From Actinobacillus seminis (GTDB taxonomy: Bacteria > Pseudomonadota > Gammaproteobacteria > Enterobacterales > Pasteurellaceae): a stretch of DNA of 64,000 nt. A model generated the notes under the pieces. The model was given only the letters and a program-made list of their open reading frames with translations. It had not been told where the DNA came from and did not search any database. The first letter of the stretch is position 1. Every line of letters starts with the position of its first letter. A program made the translations under genes and the position numbers. The stretch lies in contig NZ_NLFK01000003.1 of assembly GCF_002263215.1 (NCBI RefSeq), positions 1-64,000 on the forward strand, in the 5' to 3' direction. Shown piece after piece: positions 1 through 10,441 of this stretch.

Positions 1-146
1 CCCGAATTCATTGTCACAGAAATTAATTCGCCAACTGCGGAGCGTTCTGTTCTTTCAGAAAAACATTCCCCCAACTTTCGCTGTTCCCAATCATCAGTAA
101 ATCCTGCGAAGCGGATTTCTGGTACACATTTTTTTTGTTCTATCAT
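1..146 (-). CDS. hsdS: Type I restriction enzyme specificity subunit, N-terminal part
   Basis: Reading the minus strand from the ATG at 146, the first 48 codons give a typical HsdS beginning (MIEQKKCVPEIRFAGF, then TDDWEQRKLGE). This is the conserved lead-in to the first target-recognition domain. The gene runs off the left edge of the window, so recognition domains cannot be assessed. The start lies six bases beyond the hsdM stop codon, the usual hsdM-hsdS operon order. HsdS selects the DNA target for the HsdM methylase and the HsdR nuclease; hsdR is not in the window. The family assignment is firm despite the short length. Confidence 0.85.
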   Translation of the reverse strand, partial: MIEQKKCVPEIRFAGFTDDWEQRKLGECFSERTERSAVGELISVTMNS

Positions 147-151
147 AGCCG

Positions 152-2686
152 CTACCCCAACAATTTTGCCATTGCCCAAAATGCCTCTTCGACTTCTTTA
201 CGCTGCGTTTGGATTTCGCTCAAGGTTTCTTTGTAGCGTTCATCTAAAACTTTAAGCTGATTGGCTACCTTTCTTGAATAAGAATGGGCAATCTTTTCAA
301 GATCTCCAACTAACGTAGTTAACCATTTTTGTGCGAGCAAGATACAAATATCCTCGCCTGTTAAATGCTCAAATTGAGCTTCTACTTTGGCATCAAATAG
401 TGGCGCTTCTTTTTTCAGTTGATCTTTAGTTTGTTTAATTGCCAAAGCCAATATTTGAATTTGTTGCAAGCGGTCAGATTTTTCCTGTAATTCGCTTTCA
501 CTCCAATCTGTTGCAAGTGTAGCCCAATCGGTAAGCGTATCAATTGCCTTTTTGGCATTAGTTTTTGCTGTTTTTACAATACTTTCCAATGTGCCAATAT
601 CTTCTTCGCTCTCAAATCCACTGGTTAGTTCGGTTTGATGCTCCGCTAAACTTTCTTCATCTTGGCTGATTTGCTGTTTTAAGGCTTCTAACTTGTTTTT
701 ATCTTCCACAAAGAAGTAATCGGCAATCAAGGCTTTCGAGAAAATTGCCCCTGTTTTGCCATCTTCCACTTCTTCCTTACCTTTGGTAACCATATTCGGC
801 ACTAAAGTGCGGGCAAATTCGAAGCCATTTTCCGCCAGTAAATCAAGATCGTTTTCGATAATCCCGTTCCAACAATCTACAAAAAGTTGATACGCTTCGT
901 AAGGATCGGTAAAGGCTGATATCGCAAATTGTTGAAAAAGCGTCATTTCCAATTTGTCAAAAATCGGTAAAATCTCACTGCTTGTTACCGGCTTTTCACC
1001 TAATAATTGCGAAATCACCTCTTGTTTCCACTGTTCAATACCTTGATGCGTTGCAGCAATAAACCCTTGGTAATCGCTATCTTGTTCAATGGTACTGAAA
1101 ACCTCTTCTGCAGAAATATTTAACCGAGAGAAGTGTGGGCGCAAAGGACTGAACAAGGTTGTCTTGAGTTTTGGGAATGCTTGCCAAAAATCGCTAAACC
1201 GCTCAATGTCTTCATTTGGAATACCGCCATTTAAATGTGCGTCAATATTTTGGCTTTCATTTTTAGTGATTGGCGTAATGTAGCGCGGAATATTCAGATT
1301 AAACCGGTTCGCTTCAATTTCTGCCGGATCGGCAAGATGACTAAACCCTGCGCGAGATTCACGGTTACGATACACATCAAGAATTTTCTTTATATCTCGC
1401 TCACGCAGTACGTTGTTGTTTTTCTCTTTGCGGAAGCCTTGTGATGCGTCAATAAACAGTACGTTATTGTGTTTTGGCTGTTTGCGTAAAATCATGACAA
1501 TGGTTGGAATGCCTGTATTCGTGAAGATCCCTGCCGGTAAACCGATAACCGCATCAATTTGACGGCGTTGGAGTAATTTTGTACGGATTTTTTCTTCTTC
1601 GTTACCACGGAAAAGTACACCGTGCGGCAAGACAATCGCCATAATACCGTCTGCTTTTAAGTGATAAAGTGAATGGAGCAAGAAAGCATAATCTGCTTTG
1701 GTAGCGGGCGCTATGCCATATTCTTTAAAGCGAAGATCTTTGTCTTCACGTTCTGTATTCCATTTAGCTGAATACGGCGGGTTGGCGACCACACAATCCA
1801 CAAAAAGCGGGTTATCTTCGCCATTAACTTCACCATAAGGCCAATCGCTTTTTAGCGTGTCGGCATTGCGTAAAATCATATTGGCAGGCTTCACACCACG
1901 CATTAACAAATTCATTCGAGCAATGTTATAAGTTGTATTGTTTTCTTCCTGCCCAAAAAAGCGAATATTATCTCGATATTCATTGCGATTTACTGCCTCG
2001 CTTACGGTTAATAACAATGAACCCGATCCTGCTGTTGGATCATAAACATCACATTTATCTTTATGACGTAATTCCTCAGCCACAATTTCCGCCATAATGC
2101 GAGAAACTTGGTGTGGCGTATAGAACTCGCCCGCCTTTTTACCCGAAGCCATAGCAAATTGAGCGATCAGATATTCGTAAATATAACCGAAAACGTCATA
2201 CTCCGAATTGTCAGTAATTTTGATTCCATTTAATAATTCAATCAATTTTTTGACCGCACTTTCCTTATCTGCAATAGTTTTGCCCAATTTTTCAGAGGTA
2301 AGATTTAAGTCAGAAAAGACCCCTTCAAAATCCTCTTTTTGACTTGGATAAAGACTTTCATTGAAGTGATTGATCGCCTCTGTAACGTGCGACAATTTCC
2401 ATTTTTTTTCGCCGATATTCGCCATCCAAGTGCGATATAAATCTTTCCACTCAATAAAATAACCTAAATCACTTTGGCATTTTTCTACTCGCATTGACTT
2501 AAATGGATCATTATCAAGTTGCTCAAGACTCACGCCATTTTTTAAGAAATAATTTTCTTGATGTTCAGACAGGAATTTATAGAAAAGAAAACCAAGAATG
2601 TAATTTTTATATTCAGATGCGTCCATTTTGCCACGCAAATCATTTGCAGAAGCCCAAAGCGTTGCCGCCAGTTGTTGTTTATTCAT
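152..2686 (-). CDS. hsdM: Type I restriction-modification DNA methyltransferase subunit
   Basis: This 844-residue protein is an adenine-N6 methylase of the HsdM family. An N-terminal HsdM helical domain covers roughly residues 1-150. The SAM-binding motif DPTAGSGS is near 216-223, preceded by GEFYTP near 186, and the catalytic motif NPPY is at about 302-305. The C-terminal third is a long extension containing a predicted coiled coil, making the protein longer than the roughly 530 residues of EcoKI-type HsdM. It is co-transcribed with hsdS, whose start follows by six bases. The start ATG at 2686 leads directly into the family N-terminus. The reading frame is intact. Confidence 0.93.
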   Translation of the reverse strand: MNKQQLAATLWASANDLRGKMDASEYKNYILGFLFYKFLSEHQENYFLKNGVSLEQLDNDPFKSMRVEKCQSDLGYFIEWKDLYRTWMANIGEKKWKLSHVTEAINHFNESLYPSQKEDFEGVFSDLNLTSEKLGKTIADKESAVKKLIELLNGIKITDNSEYDVFGYIYEYLIAQFAMASGKKAGEFYTPHQVSRIMAEIVAEELRHKDKCDVYDPTAGSGSLLLTVSEAVNRNEYRDNIRFFGQEENNTTYNIARMNLLMRGVKPANMILRNADTLKSDWPYGEVNGEDNPLFVDCVVANPPYSAKWNTEREDKDLRFKEYGIAPATKADYAFLLHSLYHLKADGIMAIVLPHGVLFRGNEEEKIRTKLLQRRQIDAVIGLPAGIFTNTGIPTIVMILRKQPKHNNVLFIDASQGFRKEKNNNVLRERDIKKILDVYRNRESRAGFSHLADPAEIEANRFNLNIPRYITPITKNESQNIDAHLNGGIPNEDIERFSDFWQAFPKLKTTLFSPLRPHFSRLNISAEEVFSTIEQDSDYQGFIAATHQGIEQWKQEVISQLLGEKPVTSSEILPIFDKLEMTLFQQFAISAFTDPYEAYQLFVDCWNGIIENDLDLLAENGFEFARTLVPNMVTKGKEEVEDGKTGAIFSKALIADYFFVEDKNKLEALKQQISQDEESLAEHQTELTSGFESEEDIGTLESIVKTAKTNAKKAIDTLTDWATLATDWSESELQEKSDRLQQIQILALAIKQTKDQLKKEAPLFDAKVEAQFEHLTGEDICILLAQKWLTTLVGDLEKIAHSYSRKVANQLKVLDERYKETLSEIQTQRKEVEEAFWAMAKLLG

Positions 2687-2917: not shown

Positions 2918-5527
2918 CTACAGGCGATATTTACCCGTTATTTCTTTAACTTCTTGTACGACCTCATATTCCAAATCATCAAAATTCCGTCGGAGACAGC
3001 TGAAATTCTTACGTGCATAAGCAATTTTCAGTTGTTCCGATCGGTCTAACAAATTTTCATCCACGCCTGCCTGAATGCCTTTGCCCGTATTTTTCGTTTC
3101 GGCGACAAAGTAGATTTTATGTTGCCCTTTGAACACTACCGCCCAATCGGGGTTGTAATTGCCCAACGGAGTTGGAATTTTAAATTTCTTTGGCAGTTTA
3201 AAATAAAATTCCACCTGTTCACTATGTTCACAATCTCGAGCAAAGCTGTTTTCCGTCCCTGAATCAAGCGAAATATACTCTTCGTGAATGGTTTTAACGT
3301 GATCTTGTACTTCAAAGGTAAAGTCATTCGGGTAAAACTCGAAATCTTCAAATAAGGTCATTTCGTAAGTTTTACCTGCAATGCGGTGATATTCCACACC
3401 GTCCGCCATCATTTCTTGTAAAGCAAGATTGATTTTCTCCGCCACTAAATCGATAAAACGTTGCGGGTTGGCAAAAATCTCTGGCAAGCGGTCTGATTTT
3501 TGCAAAATTTTACCAATCGTTACTCGGGTTAGCCCTGTTTTCTTTTGCAATTCATTAAGCACATCAGGAATTGCCCACGCCGTTTTTGAATGCAGGCTGC
3601 CTACGCTTCGCAATGCGGTTTGAATACCCTCTTGGTTGATCTCCAATTTCACTTTGGTATGCGAAATTTTCGTGGCTTCCACATTTTGCATTTTAGCGAC
3701 TTTTTCCACCGCACTTGCTATCAAGGCTTCATGATCAAACGCCACTCGATAGGTAGTTTTATGTTTAATTCGCTCCCAAATCGCTTGGAAAGCAGGATAT
3801 TGGCTAAAATCTTTACGATAACGCATCGCTTTGCGATCTTCGTGCTTTTTGATATTGCTTTTCGCGAAAGCCACGCCGCAATCTTCTTCGATTTCTCGCT
3901 GAAGCTTTGAAGCAAATTCTTCGTAGCTTTCATTGGCAATCACGGTCAGGATATTTTTGCTTTTATCTTGCAACCGCACACCTTGTTGATTGACAGGCAA
4001 ACGAAGCCCACGCCCGATCTCCTGTCGTTTTTTCAGCTCACTTGCGGTGTCATTTAGCGTACAAATTTGAAACACGTTTGGATTATCCCAACCCTCACGC
4101 AAGGCAGAATGAGAGAAAATAAATCGCAACGGATTATCTAACGATAACAAACGTTCTTTATCTTTCATAATCAGCTGATAAGTGTCGTGATCCGCCTGCG
4201 TGGTACCGTTGGTATCTTTCGCCACGCCTTTTTTATCTTGCGAAAAATAGCCGTTATGCACGCCGTCAGGGGGTTCCCCTGTTAATTCACGATAAATTTC
4301 TTCAAACCACTGATGAAACTTGCCGCCATTGCGGTAATTGTCCACTTTATCAATGAAAAACAGCGACAGCACTTTTACTCCAAGAGATCGGAATTTCTGC
4401 TCTTTTTGCAAATGTTCCGCAATAGTTCGGCGAATTTGCATTTTCTGTAAATCCGCTTTCAATACTGAATTATCCGCTCCCACAAACACTTGCACACCGT
4501 TAACAAACTTAATCATTTGTGCGTCAAAGTCCATTTCGCTCAATAAATAACCATTGCAGTACATTTCATTTTGATTGGAAAGCAAAAACAGATCTTGATT
4601 TGGCTTGATGGAAACGACTTTTTTCTTCATTGCTTTTTTATCATGAAACAGAATCTCAACCTTTGCTGACCAACTTTTCGCCCCTGTTTTAATCTCCTTT
4701 AACGCAATATAAGCCCCATTCACTTCATTTTCTGCCAACACGCTATCCACTTCGATCTGTTTCACATAACCTTGTTCATAGGCTTGCACAGGGTTGAAAC
4801 TAAAAATGGGGTGGTAAGCATTTTTATGGGTGGCTGAATAACGCAAGGTAAACAGCGGATTAAGGCTTTCTATCGCTTTACGGCGAATCTCCGTCTCCAT
4901 ATTTTGCGGTTCGTCAATAATGACGATGGGACGCACTTGTTGAATATAGGAAATCGGCGCTTCACCACTTTCGTTAATGGTATTAATCACGTTGCTATCT
5001 TTGGCGAATGCGTCGATATTGATCACCAAAATTTCAATATGATGGTTTTGTGCAAACTGTTTTAAGCGTGAAAGTTGATTGCTTTTATACTCAAATTTGG
5101 AGTTCACGCTAACATTATCAAACAGCGTGGCAAAATGCGCTTTAGTGATTTCCAATGTATGTAACACGCCCTCCCGAATTGCCACACCGGGCACCACGAT
5201 CACAAATTTTTGCCAACCATATTTAGCATTTAGCTCAAAAATGGTTCTCAAATAAACGTAGGTCTTGCCCGTGCCTGTTTCCATTTCAACGGTAAAATTT
5301 AAACCGTGATCACGCAACGAAGTGCGGCCAATTTTTTGACTATTTTGCTGTTTGGCAAGATTTTCTGCCAAGGGCAAATCCGTTGCCAATTCTGCGTTGG
5401 GGCAAAATTGGCAATGTTGGGCTAATTGAAAGTGATCCGCTTTGCTATTTGGTTGCCCAATAAACAAATTCAGCACCGATTGGATTGCTTGCTGTTGATA
5501 ATCTAAGGTTTCAAATTGGAGTTTCAT
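2918..5527 (-). CDS. res: Type III restriction enzyme, helicase/endonuclease subunit
   Basis: This protein of about 869 residues is the Res subunit of a type III restriction system. It translocates on DNA and cleaves when bound to Mod. A helicase core is visible: Walker A METGTGKTY near residue 82, a DEPQ motif II near 205 and a motif VI-like segment containing QEIGRGLRLP. The C-terminus carries a PD-(D/E)xK-type nuclease core, with PDWAVVF followed by YFVAETK. I chose the ATG at 5527 (MKLQFETLDYQQQ), because the 14 codons upstream in frame look non-coding. It follows mod closely on the same strand, the usual mod-res order. The frame is intact, so the nuclease could be active when mod is switched on. 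Confidence 0.92.
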   Translation of the reverse strand: MKLQFETLDYQQQAIQSVLNLFIGQPNSKADHFQLAQHCQFCPNAELATDLPLAENLAKQQNSQKIGRTSLRDHGLNFTVEMETGTGKTYVYLRTIFELNAKYGWQKFVIVVPGVAIREGVLHTLEITKAHFATLFDNVSVNSKFEYKSNQLSRLKQFAQNHHIEILVINIDAFAKDSNVINTINESGEAPISYIQQVRPIVIIDEPQNMETEIRRKAIESLNPLFTLRYSATHKNAYHPIFSFNPVQAYEQGYVKQIEVDSVLAENEVNGAYIALKEIKTGAKSWSAKVEILFHDKKAMKKKVVSIKPNQDLFLLSNQNEMYCNGYLLSEMDFDAQMIKFVNGVQVFVGADNSVLKADLQKMQIRRTIAEHLQKEQKFRSLGVKVLSLFFIDKVDNYRNGGKFHQWFEEIYRELTGEPPDGVHNGYFSQDKKGVAKDTNGTTQADHDTYQLIMKDKERLLSLDNPLRFIFSHSALREGWDNPNVFQICTLNDTASELKKRQEIGRGLRLPVNQQGVRLQDKSKNILTVIANESYEEFASKLQREIEEDCGVAFAKSNIKKHEDRKAMRYRKDFSQYPAFQAIWERIKHKTTYRVAFDHEALIASAVEKVAKMQNVEATKISHTKVKLEINQEGIQTALRSVGSLHSKTAWAIPDVLNELQKKTGLTRVTIGKILQKSDRLPEIFANPQRFIDLVAEKINLALQEMMADGVEYHRIAGKTYEMTLFEDFEFYPNDFTFEVQDHVKTIHEEYISLDSGTENSFARDCEHSEQVEFYFKLPKKFKIPTPLGNYNPDWAVVFKGQHKIYFVAETKNTGKGIQAGVDENLLDRSEQLKIAYARKNFSCLRRNFDDLEYEVVQEVKEITGKYRL

Positions 5528-5582
5528 TTTAAATTTTTCTCTACCGGATCTGCTCCCCTTCTTTAGCAAAGAGGGGAGTTTT

Positions 5583-7475
5583 CTAAATCACAAAAAATGC
5601 CACTGCTGCATCTTTCATCTGCAATTCAGCATTTTTCTTTAACGCATCGTTACCCGCAAAAAGACGATCTAACGCCACCACTTTTAGCGGTTGTTGAGCA
5701 ATCACACCTGCCAACAACGCTTCATCAATACGTTCCAATAAAATCGCATAATGTTGTGATTTTTCATCTTCAATCCAAAACACACTATTTTCCCACTGCA
5801 CTTTTGCGGTTAATTTTAGCCCTAAACGCAACAGAATTTCATATAACATCGCGTGCGGTTCAGCTCCGTCTTTGACGTTGTCGATAAACATATCCAATTG
5901 CTCCGCAAGGTTTTCCTCTGTTGGCGATTGCCATTGTTTGAAATGGCTATCGGTGAGTTTGAACACCTTAAAACCAATATCAAGCGGTCGATTTTCATCA
6001 TTTTTTTGCAAAATTTGTGAACCTGCTCGGCGAATGCGTTCTTTTGTAATTTCAGAAATTAATGCTGGCTTACCTATTTTTTCCAAAAATTGGATTGCAT
6101 TTTCCAATGTTTTCTTTCCATCAGCAGAAACAGTTTTAATAGTTTCTGTTAAGTCCTCTGGTAATTGAACAGAAATAAAACAACGATGGCTATCTTCATT
6201 CTCAGCATTTAATTGCATAATTGCATCTGCAATACTACCACTACCAGAAAAGAAATCTAAAATTAGGTCATTTTTATCAGTAGCTAACGTTACAAAGAAT
6301 TTTAATAATTTTGTTGGTTTTGGATAATCAAAAATCTTCTCACTAAAAAGCTCATTAATTTCGTCACTACCATTTTTAGTGCTAGCAATACCTTGTAATA
6401 AAGTTGCGGGATTCACAACTCTTCTTTCTTTTTCATATCGCAATACACCGCTCTTATTAAAATAAAAACTTAAAACTTTTTGCCCTTTACTATCAATAGT
6501 TTCTTGTCCTGAAAAATAGGATTTCATCTGTCCTTTTTGAGCCCAACCAGCGCTTAATACCACATCTTCGACAAGTTTTTTATCTTTACAGAGCATTCTT
6601 CCTTTAATCAAAGTTGTCTTTTCAGAATTTCCCCATGTGCCTGTTAGCTCAAAATCATCAGGCGCGTCCCAACGTGTTCCTTTTGGAAAAGAAAATTCAC
6701 TTGCTGGATTTTTAGCTGAAATTTTTTTTAATGCCGAATGTTCAATAATACCTTCTCCACCAGAAAAATTTGGAACTAATTTCTTATCTTTAAAGTAAAC
6801 TAAAACAGTTTCATGAGCTCTTACAAAATGTCCTGCTTGTGTCCCTGTACCTAAAGCCCACACAAGTGACGAAACAAAATTCTCCTCCCCAAACACTTCA
6901 TCACACAATAATTTCAGCTGTGCCTGTTCGTTATCGTCAATGGAGATAAAAATCACGCCGTCATCTTTCAGCAAATTGCGAGCGAGATGTAAACGTGGAA
7001 GCATCATATTCAGCCAATTGCTGTGATAATGCCCATTTTCTTTACTATTTTTGCGAAACGCTTTTTTAAGCAAACCATCTTCACCGATTTCGCCTGTTTG
7101 GGTTTGATAATCCGCTTGGCTTTGAGCGAAATTATCGTTGTAAACAAAGTCGTTACCTGTGTTGTAAGGCGGATCGATGTAGATCATTTTAACCGAATTG
7201 AAATAGGATTTTTGTAACGCTTTCAATACATCAAGGTTTTCACCCTCAATAAAAATATTTTGCGTCTGCTCGAAATTTACGCTTTCTTCTACGCAAGGTG
7301 TAAGCGTTTTGTGGGTTGGGATTTGAAGCTGTTGATAAGCCTGAGACTTACCAGCCCAATTGAGATGATAGCGATCCGGATCGGTGGAAATATTATCAGC
7401 AAAAAGCTGTTTGAATTTATCGAAATCGATTTGACCTTCACTGAAAATTTCAGGTAAAAGCAATTTTAATTGCAA
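5583..7475 (-). CDS. mod: Type III DNA methyltransferase, phase-variable, OFF as sequenced
   Basis: The open frame encodes an N6-adenine methylase of the type III Mod family. The catalytic DPPY motif is near residue 101 (counted from the TTG at 7475) and FFSGSGS, the SAM-binding motif, is about two thirds along. In-frame, protein-like sequence (LANFSLKDQQLL) continues upstream of 7475 into an 8-bp repeat tract, so the true N-terminus starts there. The best start, ATG at 7650 with an AGGA box eight bases upstream, is one base out of frame and would stop at TAA 7489-7491 after about 53 codons. The mod frame itself meets TAA at 7650-7652. With one more repeat unit, or two fewer, the ATG would join mod. 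The gene partners with res downstream. Confidence 0.9.
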   Translation of the reverse strand: MQLKLLLPEIFSEGQIDFDKFKQLFADNISTDPDRYHLNWAGKSQAYQQLQIPTHKTLTPCVEESVNFEQTQNIFIEGENLDVLKALQKSYFNSVKMIYIDPPYNTGNDFVYNDNFAQSQADYQTQTGEIGEDGLLKKAFRKNSKENGHYHSNWLNMMLPRLHLARNLLKDDGVIFISIDDNEQAQLKLLCDEVFGEENFVSSLVWALGTGTQAGHFVRAHETVLVYFKDKKLVPNFSGGEGIIEHSALKKISAKNPASEFSFPKGTRWDAPDDFELTGTWGNSEKTTLIKGRMLCKDKKLVEDVVLSAGWAQKGQMKSYFSGQETIDSKGQKVLSFYFNKSGVLRYEKERRVVNPATLLQGIASTKNGSDEINELFSEKIFDYPKPTKLLKFFVTLATDKNDLILDFFSGSGSIADAIMQLNAENEDSHRCFISVQLPEDLTETIKTVSADGKKTLENAIQFLEKIGKPALISEITKERIRRAGSQILQKNDENRPLDIGFKVFKLTDSHFKQWQSPTEENLAEQLDMFIDNVKDGAEPHAMLYEILLRLGLKLTAKVQWENSVFWIEDEKSQHYAILLERIDEALLAGVIAQQPLKVVALDRLFAGNDALKKNAELQMKDAAVAFFVI

Positions 7476-7508
7476 AAGTTGTTGATCTTTAAGTGAAAAG
7501 TTGGCAAG

Positions 7509-7646
7509 GTTGTGCTGTTGTGCTGTTGTGCTGTTGTGCTGTTGTGCTGTTGTGCTGTTGTGCTGTTGTGCTGTTGTGCTGTTGTGCTGTTGTGCTGTTG
7601 TGCTGTTGTGCTGTTGTGCTGTTGTGCTGTTGTGCTGTTGTGCTGT
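7509..7646. repeat. Octanucleotide tandem repeat, about 17 copies, phase-variation tract
   Basis: A perfect 8-bp period spans 138 bp; the unit on the mod strand is AACAGCAC. It lies just inside the start of mod, between the ATG at 7650 and the conserved protein. Eight is not a multiple of three, so each slipped unit changes the frame. Translated in any frame the tract reads as an eight-residue repeat such as NSTTAQQH. Simple-repeat switching of type III mod genes (phasevarions) is well established in Pasteurellaceae; this unit is seen here directly. Confidence 0.95.
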
Positions 7647-7662
7647 GCATTATGGTGATCCT
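7646..7662 (-). promoter_or_regulatory. Ribosome binding site and start codon of the switchable mod N-terminus
   Basis: On the minus strand an AGGA box is followed by eight bases and ATG (7648-7650), then CAC and the repeat. This decides the start of mod, and it is the only well-placed start before the tract. The rest of 7663-7873 shows no gene. It is AT-rich and holds one ACAAGCGGT-type uptake signal (complement at 7845-7853). Confidence 0.6.
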
Positions 7663-7873
7663 AGAAAAATAACTGTCAAGTGAATTTTACCGGATCAGCT
7701 TTTAATTATAAATAACAATCCAAGAAATTAAGTAAATTTAATGCATAAATTAGTTATTGAATAACCATTACTTAATATTCTTTGCTTTATAAAAATTAAA
7801 CGGTCAATATCCAAACAAAATCTACAAATTTCTGCTTGGTGTTGACCGCTTGTAGATAATCATTCGAAGTCAT

Positions 7874-7951
7874 TGTAGGGACGCCACACTGGCGTCCGTT
7901 CAAAAACGGAGTGAAATTTATGTTATGGACGCCAAGCGTGGCACCCCTATA
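7874..7951. repeat. Intergenic inverted-repeat element
   Basis: The arm at about 7876-7903 (TGTAGGGACGCCACACTGGC and on) is imperfectly complementary to the arm at about 7924-7951 (ATGGACGCCAAGCGTGGC). The first arm also contains its own short palindrome, GGACGCCA/TGGCGTCC. A second pair, ACGGAGTGAA (about 7906) and TTCACTCCGT (about 7952), is interleaved. It resembles a small REP- or MITE-like element sitting 3' of infB, and may act as its terminator. Confidence 0.55.
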
Positions 7952-7966
7952 TTCACTCCGTAAACA

Positions 7967-10441
7967 TTAAATGCTACGTTTAACCTCAACCACTTCGAAT
8001 ACCTCGATTTGGTCGCCGACTTTAACATCGTTGTAGTTTTTCACGCCGATACCGCATTCCATACCGTTACGTACTTCGGAAACGTCATCTTTGAAACGAC
8101 GGAGAGATTCTAACTCGCCTTCAAAGATGACCACGTTATCACGCAATACACGGATTGGGTTATTACGTTTCACGACACCTTCGGTGACCATACAACCTGC
8201 AATCGCACCGAATTTCGGATGACGGAATACGTCGCGCACTTCTGCCAAACCGATAATTTCCTGTTTAAATTCAGGTTGCAACATACCGCTCATTGCTGCT
8301 TTAATTTCGTTTAATAACTCATAAATAATTGAATAATAACGCAAATCGATATTTTCGTTTTCGATAATACGACGTGCTGAAGCATCAGCACGCACGTTAA
8401 AGCCAAGGACAATCGCATTTGAAGCCGCTGCAAGGGTCGCATCCGTTTCAGTAATTCCACCGACACCGGATCCCACTACTTTCACTTTTACTTCAGCAGT
8501 TGAAAGTTCTTGTAAGGATTGAACAATCGCTTCGACTGAACCTTGAACGTCCGCTTTAACGATAACGTTCAATTCCGCTACATCACCCTCTGCCATATTG
8601 CTGAACATATTTTCGAGCTTCGCTTTTTGCTGGCGAGCAAGTTTCACATCACGGAATTTACCTTGACGATACAGCGCCACTTCGCGCGCTTTTTTTTCAT
8701 CACGCACAACTGTTGCTTCATCCCCTGCGGCAGGAACGCCGGATAAACCAAGTACCTCCACCGGAATTGATGGACCTGCCGCATCAATATCTTTTCCGTC
8801 TTCATCACGCATGGCGCGCACACGACCGTATTCAAAGCCGCAAAGTACGATATCACCACGATGTAAAGTACCTGATTGCACAAGAATTGTCGCCACCGGA
8901 CCACGACCTTTATCCAAATAAGATTCGATCACCACACCACTTGCCATACCCTCTTTTACCGCAGTAAGCTCAAGCACTTCAGATTGCAACAAAATCGCAT
9001 CCAACAATTCATCAACGCCGGTTCCTTTTTTCGCCGATACATAAACAAATTGCGTGTCACCGCCAAATTTTTCTGCAATCACTTCATGTTGTAACAATTC
9101 TTGTTCTACACGATCCGGATTAGCTTCCGGTTTATCAATTTTATTCACCGCTACCACAATCGGTACACCTGCGGCTTTCGCGTGTTGAATTGCTTCTATT
9201 GTTTGCGGCATCACTCCATCATCCGCTGCCACCACAAGAACCACAATATCCGTCGCTTTCGCACCGCGCGCGCGCATAGAGGTAAACGCCGCGTGTCCCG
9301 GTGTATCTAAGAAGGTAATCATCTTACCGTCTTCGGTTTCAACGTGGTAGGCACCGATATGTTGAGTAATCCCGCCGGCTTCACCTGCTGCCACTTTCGC
9401 TTTACGAATATAGTCAAGTAACGAGGTTTTACCATGGTCAACGTGCCCCATAATCGTCACGACCGGCGCTCGCGTTACTTTTTCCGCATTGACATCACGA
9501 TCTTCCAATACGGACTCTTCCAACTCGTTTTCTTTTCGTAAAATGACTTTATGTCCCATTTCTTCTGCCACTAATTGGGCAGTTTCTTGGTCAATCACCT
9601 GATTAATGGTCACCATCTCGCCCATTTTCATCATGGTTTTGATGATTTCCGTGGCTTTTACCGCCATTTTATTGGCAAGTTCGGCAACCGTAATCGTTTC
9701 ACCGATCACCACATCTCGGTTAACCGGCGCCGCAGGTTTGGTAAAGCTTTGTTGTAAACTGCTGCCTTTCTTACCGTTTTTGCCTTTTCCTTTTATATCT
9801 TTTTGATTGCGGCGATTAGATTCACGTTCACTTTTGGTATTTTCATCATCACGACCGCTTTTTTTCGCTTTCACGACTTTATTTTTACCGCGACCACGAC
9901 CTTCTTTACGACGTTCTTCTTCATCTTCCGCTTCCAAAGCATAGCTGGAGGTTAAATGATAATCAGTGTAATCTTCCGTTGTATCATCGTTGTCAGAATC
10001 TGCCAATTCAGCATAGCGTTTTGCCTCTTCGGCAGCACGACGCGCTTGCTCTTCTGCCTTTTGACGGGCTAACTCGTCCGCTTTACGACGTAATTCCGCT
10101 TCTTCCGCTTTGCGCTTTTCTTTTTCCGGATCAAGGGCTTTTGCCGCTCTTTCTTGCGCTAATTTTTCGCTTTGTGCACGCGCTTTTTCTTGTGCTTCCT
10201 TTTCTGCCTGCGCTATCTTCGCTTGCTCCGCCGCTTTTCTTTCTTCTTCCGCTTTGGCTTTCAAGCGAGCTTGTTCCTCCGCTTTTCTTGCCGCTTCGGT
10301 CGGCACTGTGCGTTTTTTACGCACTTCAACTTGAACCTCTTTGCTTTTACCTGTTGTCGTTGTACTGTTTACTGTTGTTTTCGTTCTACGCTGTAAACTC
10401 AATTTTTTAGGCGCTGCGGGTTGTTTTACATCATCTGTCAT
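7967..10441 (-). CDS. infB: Translation initiation factor IF-2
   Basis: This 824-residue GTPase brings initiator tRNA to the 30S subunit and promotes subunit joining. The N-terminal third is a highly charged, Lys/Glu/Ala-rich linker with long helical repeats, as in other gammaproteobacterial IF-2. An IF2-N domain ([13 protein letters not shown]) precedes the G domain, with [14 protein letters not shown] (G1), DTPGHAAF (G3) and NKID (G4). Domains II to IV follow to the C-terminus. The length is usual for the family. It lies directly downstream of nusA in the conserved metY-rimP-nusA-infB operon. The frame is intact. Confidence 0.97.

What the first reader, a model, noticed from the sequence alone, without database searches (positions are those of the whole stretch)
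7509..7650. Octamer repeat switches a type III mod gene (candidate phasevarion)
About 17 copies of an 8-bp unit lie between the ATG with its ribosome binding site and the methylase. By counting, the present copy number is out of frame; 18 or 15 copies would be in frame. Most known mod switches use tetra- or pentamers, so an octamer is unusual. Switching mod would change methylation and gene expression genome-wide, together with Res protection.
Basis: partly seen in the sequence, partly recalled or inferred. Interest (0 to 1): 0.75.

Follow-up and report, generated by a model that had tools for sequence, protein, structure and literature searches.

The report
Octamer repeat switch on DNA methylase
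A run of seventeen identical 8-letter repeats sits just after the start codon of a bacterial DNA-marking enzyme gene and very probably turns it on and off by slipping; such switches are well known, but close relatives carry a 5-letter repeat at the same spot, so this is an unusual repeat-size variant of a known device.

Summary
On the minus strand, 17.25 perfect copies of an 8-mer (7509-7646) lie between an ATG with a ribosome-binding site (7650-7648) and an intact type III mod gene (to 5583), followed by an intact res. In this assembly the ATG frame ends after 53 codons, so mod is OFF; whole-unit counts 15, 18 and so on are in frame.

The regulon ("phasevarion") part is inferred by analogy only.

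New here: a second species of the same genus has this locus with near-identical flanks but a pentamer, (CACAG)n. That pentamer lies at the mod start in 14 of 26 examined Pasteurellaceae mod 5' ends; the octamer occurs in 1 of 140 family genomes, this one. CACAACAG reads as CACAG with ACA duplicated, so the unit was probably replaced in place. Four of 12 scorable pentamer loci are in frame, the third expected if lengths drift freely. The recognition domain is swapped (22% identity) between ends 97% and 94% identical to the sister allele; dN/dS is low.

Verdict: new variant of a known kind. Copy-number change within one strain could not be tested.

The parts
7648..7650 (-). start codon ATG of the phase-variable mod ORF
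   Evidence: ATG directly before the array here and in the 12 pentamer relatives scored; 11 of those 12 have an AGG-type ribosome-binding site, L102 has AGAGA
7659..7662 (-). Shine-Dalgarno-like AGGA, 8 nt before the ATG
   Evidence: sequence, scripts
7509..7646 (-). perfect octamer array, 17.25 copies (gene strand, with the preceding C: CACAG, 16 x CACAACAG, CACAA)
   Evidence: three-unit octamer pattern found in 1 of 140 family genomes, this one
5583..7508 (-). type III DNA methyltransferase mod downstream of the array (641 codons, no internal stop)
   Evidence: Pfam N6_N4_Mtase, PADLOC MTase_III, PDB Mod of 6k0w and EcoP15I 4zcf; dN/dS 0.037 and 0.133 in its conserved ends
6060..6873 (-). 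variable central region of mod (target recognition domain), swapped relative to the sister species
   Evidence: no DNA alignment here with G002 while both sides are 91-94% identical; 22% protein identity over residues 200-365
2918..5527 (-). type III restriction subunit res (869 aa, no internal stop)
   Evidence: Pfam ResIII + RE_endonuc, PADLOC REase_III, PDB EcoP15I Res 4zcf_C; dN/dS 0.117
152..2686 (-). type I hsdM directly downstream; context, not part of the switch (the contig begins at window base 1)
   Evidence: NCBIfam TIGR00497; Tandem Repeats Finder lists no array in it
7967..10441 (-). infB, conserved neighbour marking the insertion site
   Evidence: 98% identical in G001 and G002; the R-M genes follow it in G002 but not in the 1.5 kb seen beyond it in G001

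Best explanation
[quoted passage not shown] Translation starts at the ATG at 7650 and reads through the repeats. Gain or loss of 8-bp units by slippage during replication moves mod into frame (ON, one count in three) or out of it (OFF, two counts in three, stop just after the array). ON cells make Mod with an N-terminal tail of STTAQQHN repeats, methylate one DNA motif, and can form Mod-Res; OFF cells neither methylate nor restrict. Shown by sequence: array, start, frames, intact mod and res, allele swapping, selection. Inferred: slippage in the living strain, loss of protein when OFF, dependence of Res on Mod (known for EcoP15I, recalled), and a change in the expression of other genes. The octamer most likely arose in place from the family's pentamer CACAG by duplication of an ACA triplet followed by spread of the new unit along the array.
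For: Perfect 138-bp array after an ATG with a ribosome-binding site, with stops soon after it in both OFF frames. A pentamer ACAGC array in the same place in 14 of 26 examined Pasteurellaceae mod 5' ends. 4 of 12 scorable pentamer loci in frame, 8 out. Same-genus G002 has near-identical flanks and a pentamer. Conserved N (97%) and C (94%) ends with a 22% TRD, the pattern described for ModA and ModS alleles (passages of PMC10783040 and PMC8125046). dN/dS 0.037 (mod N end), 0.133 (mod C end), 0.117 (res), against 0.044 for infB. No conserved alternative start. In B. trehalosi an ACAGC tract in another methylase gene correlates with activity by reading frame: 27 copies active, 17 inactive (PMC4996451 section 25).
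Against: No two genomes of the same species were available, so length change was not seen. The copy number may be an assembly artefact. Longer units may slip less often than 4-5-mers. Of 26 family mod 5' ends examined, 7 have no array above threshold, G009 among them with two pentamer units out of frame, so the switch is not universal. In B. trehalosi group C a different SSR (CGCAA, upstream of the start) did not track activity cleanly. The AlphaFold model was poor (mean pLDDT 59.8) and adds nothing on function.
Confidence: 0.88

Rival explanations
1. The switch serves restriction, not gene regulation: turning the whole R-M system off lets DNA in or avoids self-cutting, and turning it on resists phage; any change in gene expression is a by-product.
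For: res is intact and under purifying selection (dN/dS 0.117). The switch controls the methylase that type III Res needs (recalled for EcoP15I). A review says it is not clear whether phasevarions or other benefits such as phage resistance drove such loci (PMC11868660 passages).
Against: Does not exclude a regulon; reviews and papers report regulons or phenotypes for ModA, ModS and ModP (passages).
Confidence: 0.45
2. Frozen OFF allele: the array no longer slips, or mod is decaying, so the gene is a relic.
For: Out of frame in this assembly.
Against: The array is perfect over 138 bp; no stop in mod or res; dN/dS well below 1; relatives occur in both phases.
Confidence: 0.06
3. Constitutive expression from a start downstream of the repeats (TTG 7475 or 7463, ATG 7187), with the array bypassed.
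For: In-frame TTG codons exist at 7475 and 7463; one relative (L096) has ATG at the first of these places.
Against: No clear ribosome-binding site before either; both are TCG in the sister species, and the first is a start codon in 1 of 20 relatives shown; ATG 7187 would remove about 100 residues holding many invariant columns.
Confidence: 0.05
4. The array tunes transcription or mRNA structure rather than reading frame.
For: A heptamer array in G121 lies before the start codon of another mod, and B. trehalosi group C has CGCAA repeats upstream of its ATG (PMC4996451), so such arrangements exist.
Against: Here the array lies after the ATG; the promoter scan of 5400-8100 found 3 sites against a shuffled mean of 7.3, one of them (7712-7684, 9 of 12) upstream of mod, which says little either way.
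Confidence: 0.05

Closest known systems
(ACAGC)n type III mod genes of Pasteurellaceae (this gene family; probably the group that includes ModP of Actinobacillus pleuropneumoniae)
   Same: ATG and ribosome-binding site, in-ORF repeat, conserved ends, swapped TRD; near-identical flanks and a res 95% identical in G002
   Different: Unit is 8 bp (CACAACAG) instead of 5 bp (CACAG); octamer in 1 of 140 genomes, pentamer arrays (5 or more units, any gene) in 42 of 140. Identity with A. pleuropneumoniae ModP was not tested; the primary paper is not held
ModA phasevarions of Haemophilus influenzae and Neisseria
   Same: SSR in the mod ORF, ON/OFF by frame, conserved ends and variable TRD (PMC10783040 passages)
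   Different: AGCC tetramer; regulons shown by experiment
ModS of Streptococcus suis
   Same: In-ORF SSR with one ON frame in three, shown by Western blot (PMC8125046 passages)
   Different: GAGCA pentamer, a Gram-positive host
M.Btr188III of Bibersteinia trehalosi and type I HsdM of G001, G024, G026, G028
   Same: A start codon followed by the same ACAGC array at the start of a methylase gene (PMC4996451 section 25)
   Different: Methylase with a bipartite site, or type I HsdM, not type III; pentamer
Octamer and nonamer SSRs of H. influenzae
   Same: Long-unit SSRs in a Pasteurellaceae species (PMC2651432 section 16)
   Different: Between or upstream of other genes, 1-6 copies for the octamer; the mod SSR of that species is AGCC

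Membership tests
Type III restriction-modification system | Mod with DPPY and FxGxG motifs, TRD between them, EcoP15I-like | tested here: met
   DPPY and FFSGSG in sequence; Pfam N6_N4_Mtase; PDB 4zcf_A E 3e-53; PADLOC MTase_III E 4e-183
Type III restriction-modification system | Adjacent Res with helicase and PD-ExK domains | tested here: met
   GTGKT, DEPQ and PD...ETK in sequence; Pfam ResIII and RE_endonuc; PDB 4zcf_C
Phase-variable mod gene (in-ORF SSR) | SSR with unit not divisible by 3 between start codon and methylase | tested here: met
Phase-variable mod gene (in-ORF SSR) | Both OFF frames end soon after the array | tested here: met
   stops at 7491-7489 and 7468-7466
Phase-variable mod gene (in-ORF SSR) | Alleles differ in the TRD, ends conserved | tested here: met
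   97 / 22 / 94% with G002, a second species of the genus
Phase-variable mod gene (in-ORF SSR) | Copy number varies between cells or isolates of one species | not testable with these tools
   one genome per species held; across species 3 to 36 copies
Phasevarion | ON and OFF cells differ in methylome and in expression of many genes | not testable with these tools
   needs SMRT or nanopore sequencing and RNA-seq
ModP (A. pleuropneumoniae) | Conserved-end identity with published modP alleles and a GCACA tract (tract recalled) | not tested
   Nahar 2023 not held; only review passages seen
ACAGC-pentamer mod family of Pasteurellaceae | Pentamer unit in the array | tested here: not met
   unit is 8 bp; one leading CACAG remains
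ACAGC-pentamer mod family of Pasteurellaceae | Homologous ends and same array position | tested here: met
   76-97% over residues 1-190 in 16 of 16 relatives compared; layout

The most novel reading that the evidence does not exclude
A hypermutable repeat can change its unit size in place while keeping the switch: in one lineage the family-wide pentamer CACAG was converted into the octamer CACAACAG by duplication of an ACA triplet and homogenised along the whole array, resetting the slippage rate of the methylase switch. The 'start codon + (CACAG)n' tail would be a shared N-terminal switch module used by both type III Mod and type I HsdM across the family, with unit size as an evolvable setting of switching rate.
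Probability: 0.45. Interest if true: 0.55.

Novelty: new variant of a known kind. Interest (0 to 1): 0.4.

Why it matters
Phase-variable methylases let a clonal population hedge its bets over DNA marks and restriction. Two species of one genus with the same mod locus and near-identical flanks but 8-bp and 5-bp units are a natural pair for asking how unit size sets switching rate, and how a long perfect array can change its unit without losing the switch.

Tried and rejected
Tried with little result: an AlphaFold model of the array-plus-Mod frame was poor (mean pLDDT 59.8, 25-sequence alignment); the repeat tail has pLDDT below 50, and no fold search was made. The promoter scan found fewer sites than shuffles (3 against 7.3). 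The octamer pattern had no match in viral contigs. No octamer-pentamer hybrid array (17-base pattern) turned up in the other 139 family genomes, so the step from 5 to 8 bp has no witness. An ACA duplication alone also does not explain the 3' edge, CACAAC here against CACAGC in G002, so a second change or a different path is possible.

Rejected: a chance repeat; a relic gene; a downstream constitutive start.

Literature: the survey of type III systems (Atack 2018) and the ModP paper (Nahar 2023) are not held; only their entries in reference lists and review passages were seen. I therefore do not claim that no octamer mod has been printed. Searches with octanucleotide or 8-bp-repeat terms (capped listings) showed no paper that I could see tying an octamer to a mod gene; PMC2651432, the one with octamers and phase variation that I opened, puts its octamer elsewhere. 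Papers opened as passages only: PMC13076061, PMC12456177, PMC11868660, PMC8259958, PMC8125046, PMC10783040, PMC6211672; passages plus one section: PMC2651432 and PMC4996451.

Rows dropped: L104 (run of N in the array) and L106 (contig edge, ATG not visible) were left out of the 12 frame calls though counted among the 14 pentamer loci. In the same, eight loci with other repeat units (L010 and L097 being one genome) had 4 in frame and 4 out; L018 had no ATG in reach and L094, L112 and L020 no array. Of the 121 loci held, those without an N-terminal match were not examined. The 26 family genomes are those's loci with such a match; 140 genomes were searched and 75 had any match. L105 (3 copies) counts as a pentamer locus through although one search's threshold missed it.

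Full report
What is there. The gene is on the minus strand. Of five rows that Tandem Repeats Finder reports for the window, the strongest by far is 7509-7646, period 8, 17.2 copies, 100% matches (score 276, next 117). Extended by script it is 138 bp, 17.25 copies. In gene orientation the sequence is AGGA-8 nt-ATG-CACAG-(CACAACAG)16-CACAA-CCTTGCC. Chance is excluded: 16 two-unit matches against a shuffled mean of 0.01.

Frames. The ATG at 7650-7648 is out of frame with the methylase; its product is 53 aa and ends at 7491-7489. The third frame ends at 7468-7466, and only the methylase frame runs on to 5583. Whole-unit counts of 15, 18, 21 and so on are in frame. The copy number comes from a 22-contig assembly and may be mis-sized; that would change the present state, not the design.

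The genes. Mod matches Pfam N6_N4_Mtase, PADLOC MTase_III, and the solved Mod subunits 6k0w and EcoP15I 4zcf. Res matches Pfam ResIII and RE_endonuc and EcoP15I Res. Neither has an internal stop. A type I hsdM follows. infB lies on the other side and is 98% identical in both genus relatives. In G002 the R-M genes also follow infB; in G001 the match to the window ends at infB in the 1.5 kb seen beyond it, and no mod relative is found in that genome. So the R-M block is a variable insertion at infB.

Relatives. I examined the mod 5' ends of 26 Pasteurellaceae genomes, being the loci with an N-terminal match (140 genomes searched, 75 with any match at E 0.001). Fourteen have the pentamer ACAGC just before mod; the ATG before it is visible in 13, the other (L106) being cut by a contig end. 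One, our own, has the octamer. One each has GGATC, CCTTG, CGCAA and a truncated heptamer. Seven have no array above threshold, G009 among them with two pentamer units. The octamer pattern occurs in 1 of 140 family genomes and a looser octamer or hybrid pattern again only here. Pentamer arrays of at least five units, in any gene, occur in 42 of 140. Named loci among the 80 from genome contigs show the same pentamer in Actinobacillus ureae, Mannheimia haemolytica, Gallibacterium anatis, Avibacterium paragallinarum and Aggregatibacter segnis, and these appear to be the same genomes as loci of the family search; three Moraxella loci have tetramers.

Unit change. G002, a second species of the same genus, has a near-identical leader, the same ATG-CACAG start and the same CTTGCCAACTTTTCACTTAAAG exit, with 35.4 pentamer copies in place of the octamers. 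CACAACAG is CACAG with ACA doubled. The 3' edge, CACAAC against CACAGC, needs one more change. No intermediate was found. Replacement of the unit in place is an inference, but both flanks of the array are homologous, so the locus is the same.

Is it a working switch? Across the 12 pentamer loci whose frame could be read, copy numbers run from 3 to 36; 4 are in frame and 8 out, the one third expected if length drifts freely. Eight further loci with other units in the same call had 4 in and 4 out. That is one genome per species and partly draft assemblies, so it is supportive, not proof. Against G002 the dN/dS is 0.037 for the first 200 codons of mod, 0.133 for the last 125, 0.117 for res and 0.044 for infB, so the OFF gene is maintained. 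The recognition domain is swapped: identity with G002 is 97% (residues 1-190), 22% (200-365), 39% (366-470) and 94% (500-630). ModA and ModS alleles are described in the same way (passages). No conserved later start exists: the codon at 7475 is a start in 1 of 20 relatives shown.

Shared module. In G001 a type I HsdM gene begins with the same ATG-(CACAG)n; in G024, G026 and G028 an ATG lies 5-9 nt before the same pentamer array on HsdM genes (TIGR00497 hits of 168-183 bits, below the curated cut-off of 242.75). Two of the four are in frame with that ATG. In B. trehalosi a methylase with MPN(STAQH)n is active with 27 copies and inactive with 17 (PMC4996451 section 25). That is independent evidence from a related species that this repeat works through frame.

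How it most likely works. Slippage adds or removes 8-bp units; one count in three gives Mod with a repeat tail; OFF counts give a short peptide. Res is thought to need Mod (recalled for EcoP15I), so restriction switches too. Whether other genes change is open. A review lists A. pleuropneumoniae ModP1 as m4C, CAA(m4C)T (PMC12456177 passage), and m4C type III enzymes share the DPPY motif (PMC8259958 passages), so the methylated base cannot be read from sequence here.

Placing. It works like a phase-variable type III mod gene, and meets every feature of that kind that I tested in sequence; variation within a species could not be tested. It is not a standard member of the ACAGC-pentamer group because the unit differs. 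I recall, without a call, that A. pleuropneumoniae modP has GCACA repeats; identity with ModP was not tested. The interest lies in the change of unit size between sister species, not in a new mechanism.

Noticed in passing
L122:6879-8625 (G001), L123, L124, L125: Type I hsdM genes of four relatives start with an ATG and the ACAGC pentamer array known from the type III mod genes; two are in frame and two out of frame with the nearest ATG in the assemblies.
   Followed up: partly
G116 (family search): This genome has 137 forward and 82 reverse matches to a 25-base ACAGC pentamer pattern, far more than any other of 140, which suggests many or very long phase-variable arrays.
   Followed up: no
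L140 / L116 (G121:C29, contig end): A heptamer array, AGCCTAC, truncated by the contig end, lies just before the ribosome-binding site and ATG of another type III mod gene: a possible long-unit repeat upstream of the start rather than inside the ORF.
   Followed up: partly
window 7876-7966: An element between infB and mod that by eye looks like an inverted repeat; the gap between infB and mod is about 80 bp shorter in G002; only short partial copies (24-25 bp) elsewhere in the genome.
   Followed up: partly
window 1-2686: A type I hsdM without a listed tandem repeat lies next to the type III system, so two R-M systems sit together beside infB; the contig begins at base 1, so hsdS and hsdR are not visible.
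   Followed up: no
window: The uptake-sequence word AAGTGCGGT occurs 38 times and ACAAGCGGT 7 times on both strands; GC is 40%.
   Followed up: partly
L094 (G009): Best-scoring relative in the family search (70% identity) has only two pentamer units and is out of frame with its ATG, perhaps a nearly locked OFF allele.
   Followed up: no
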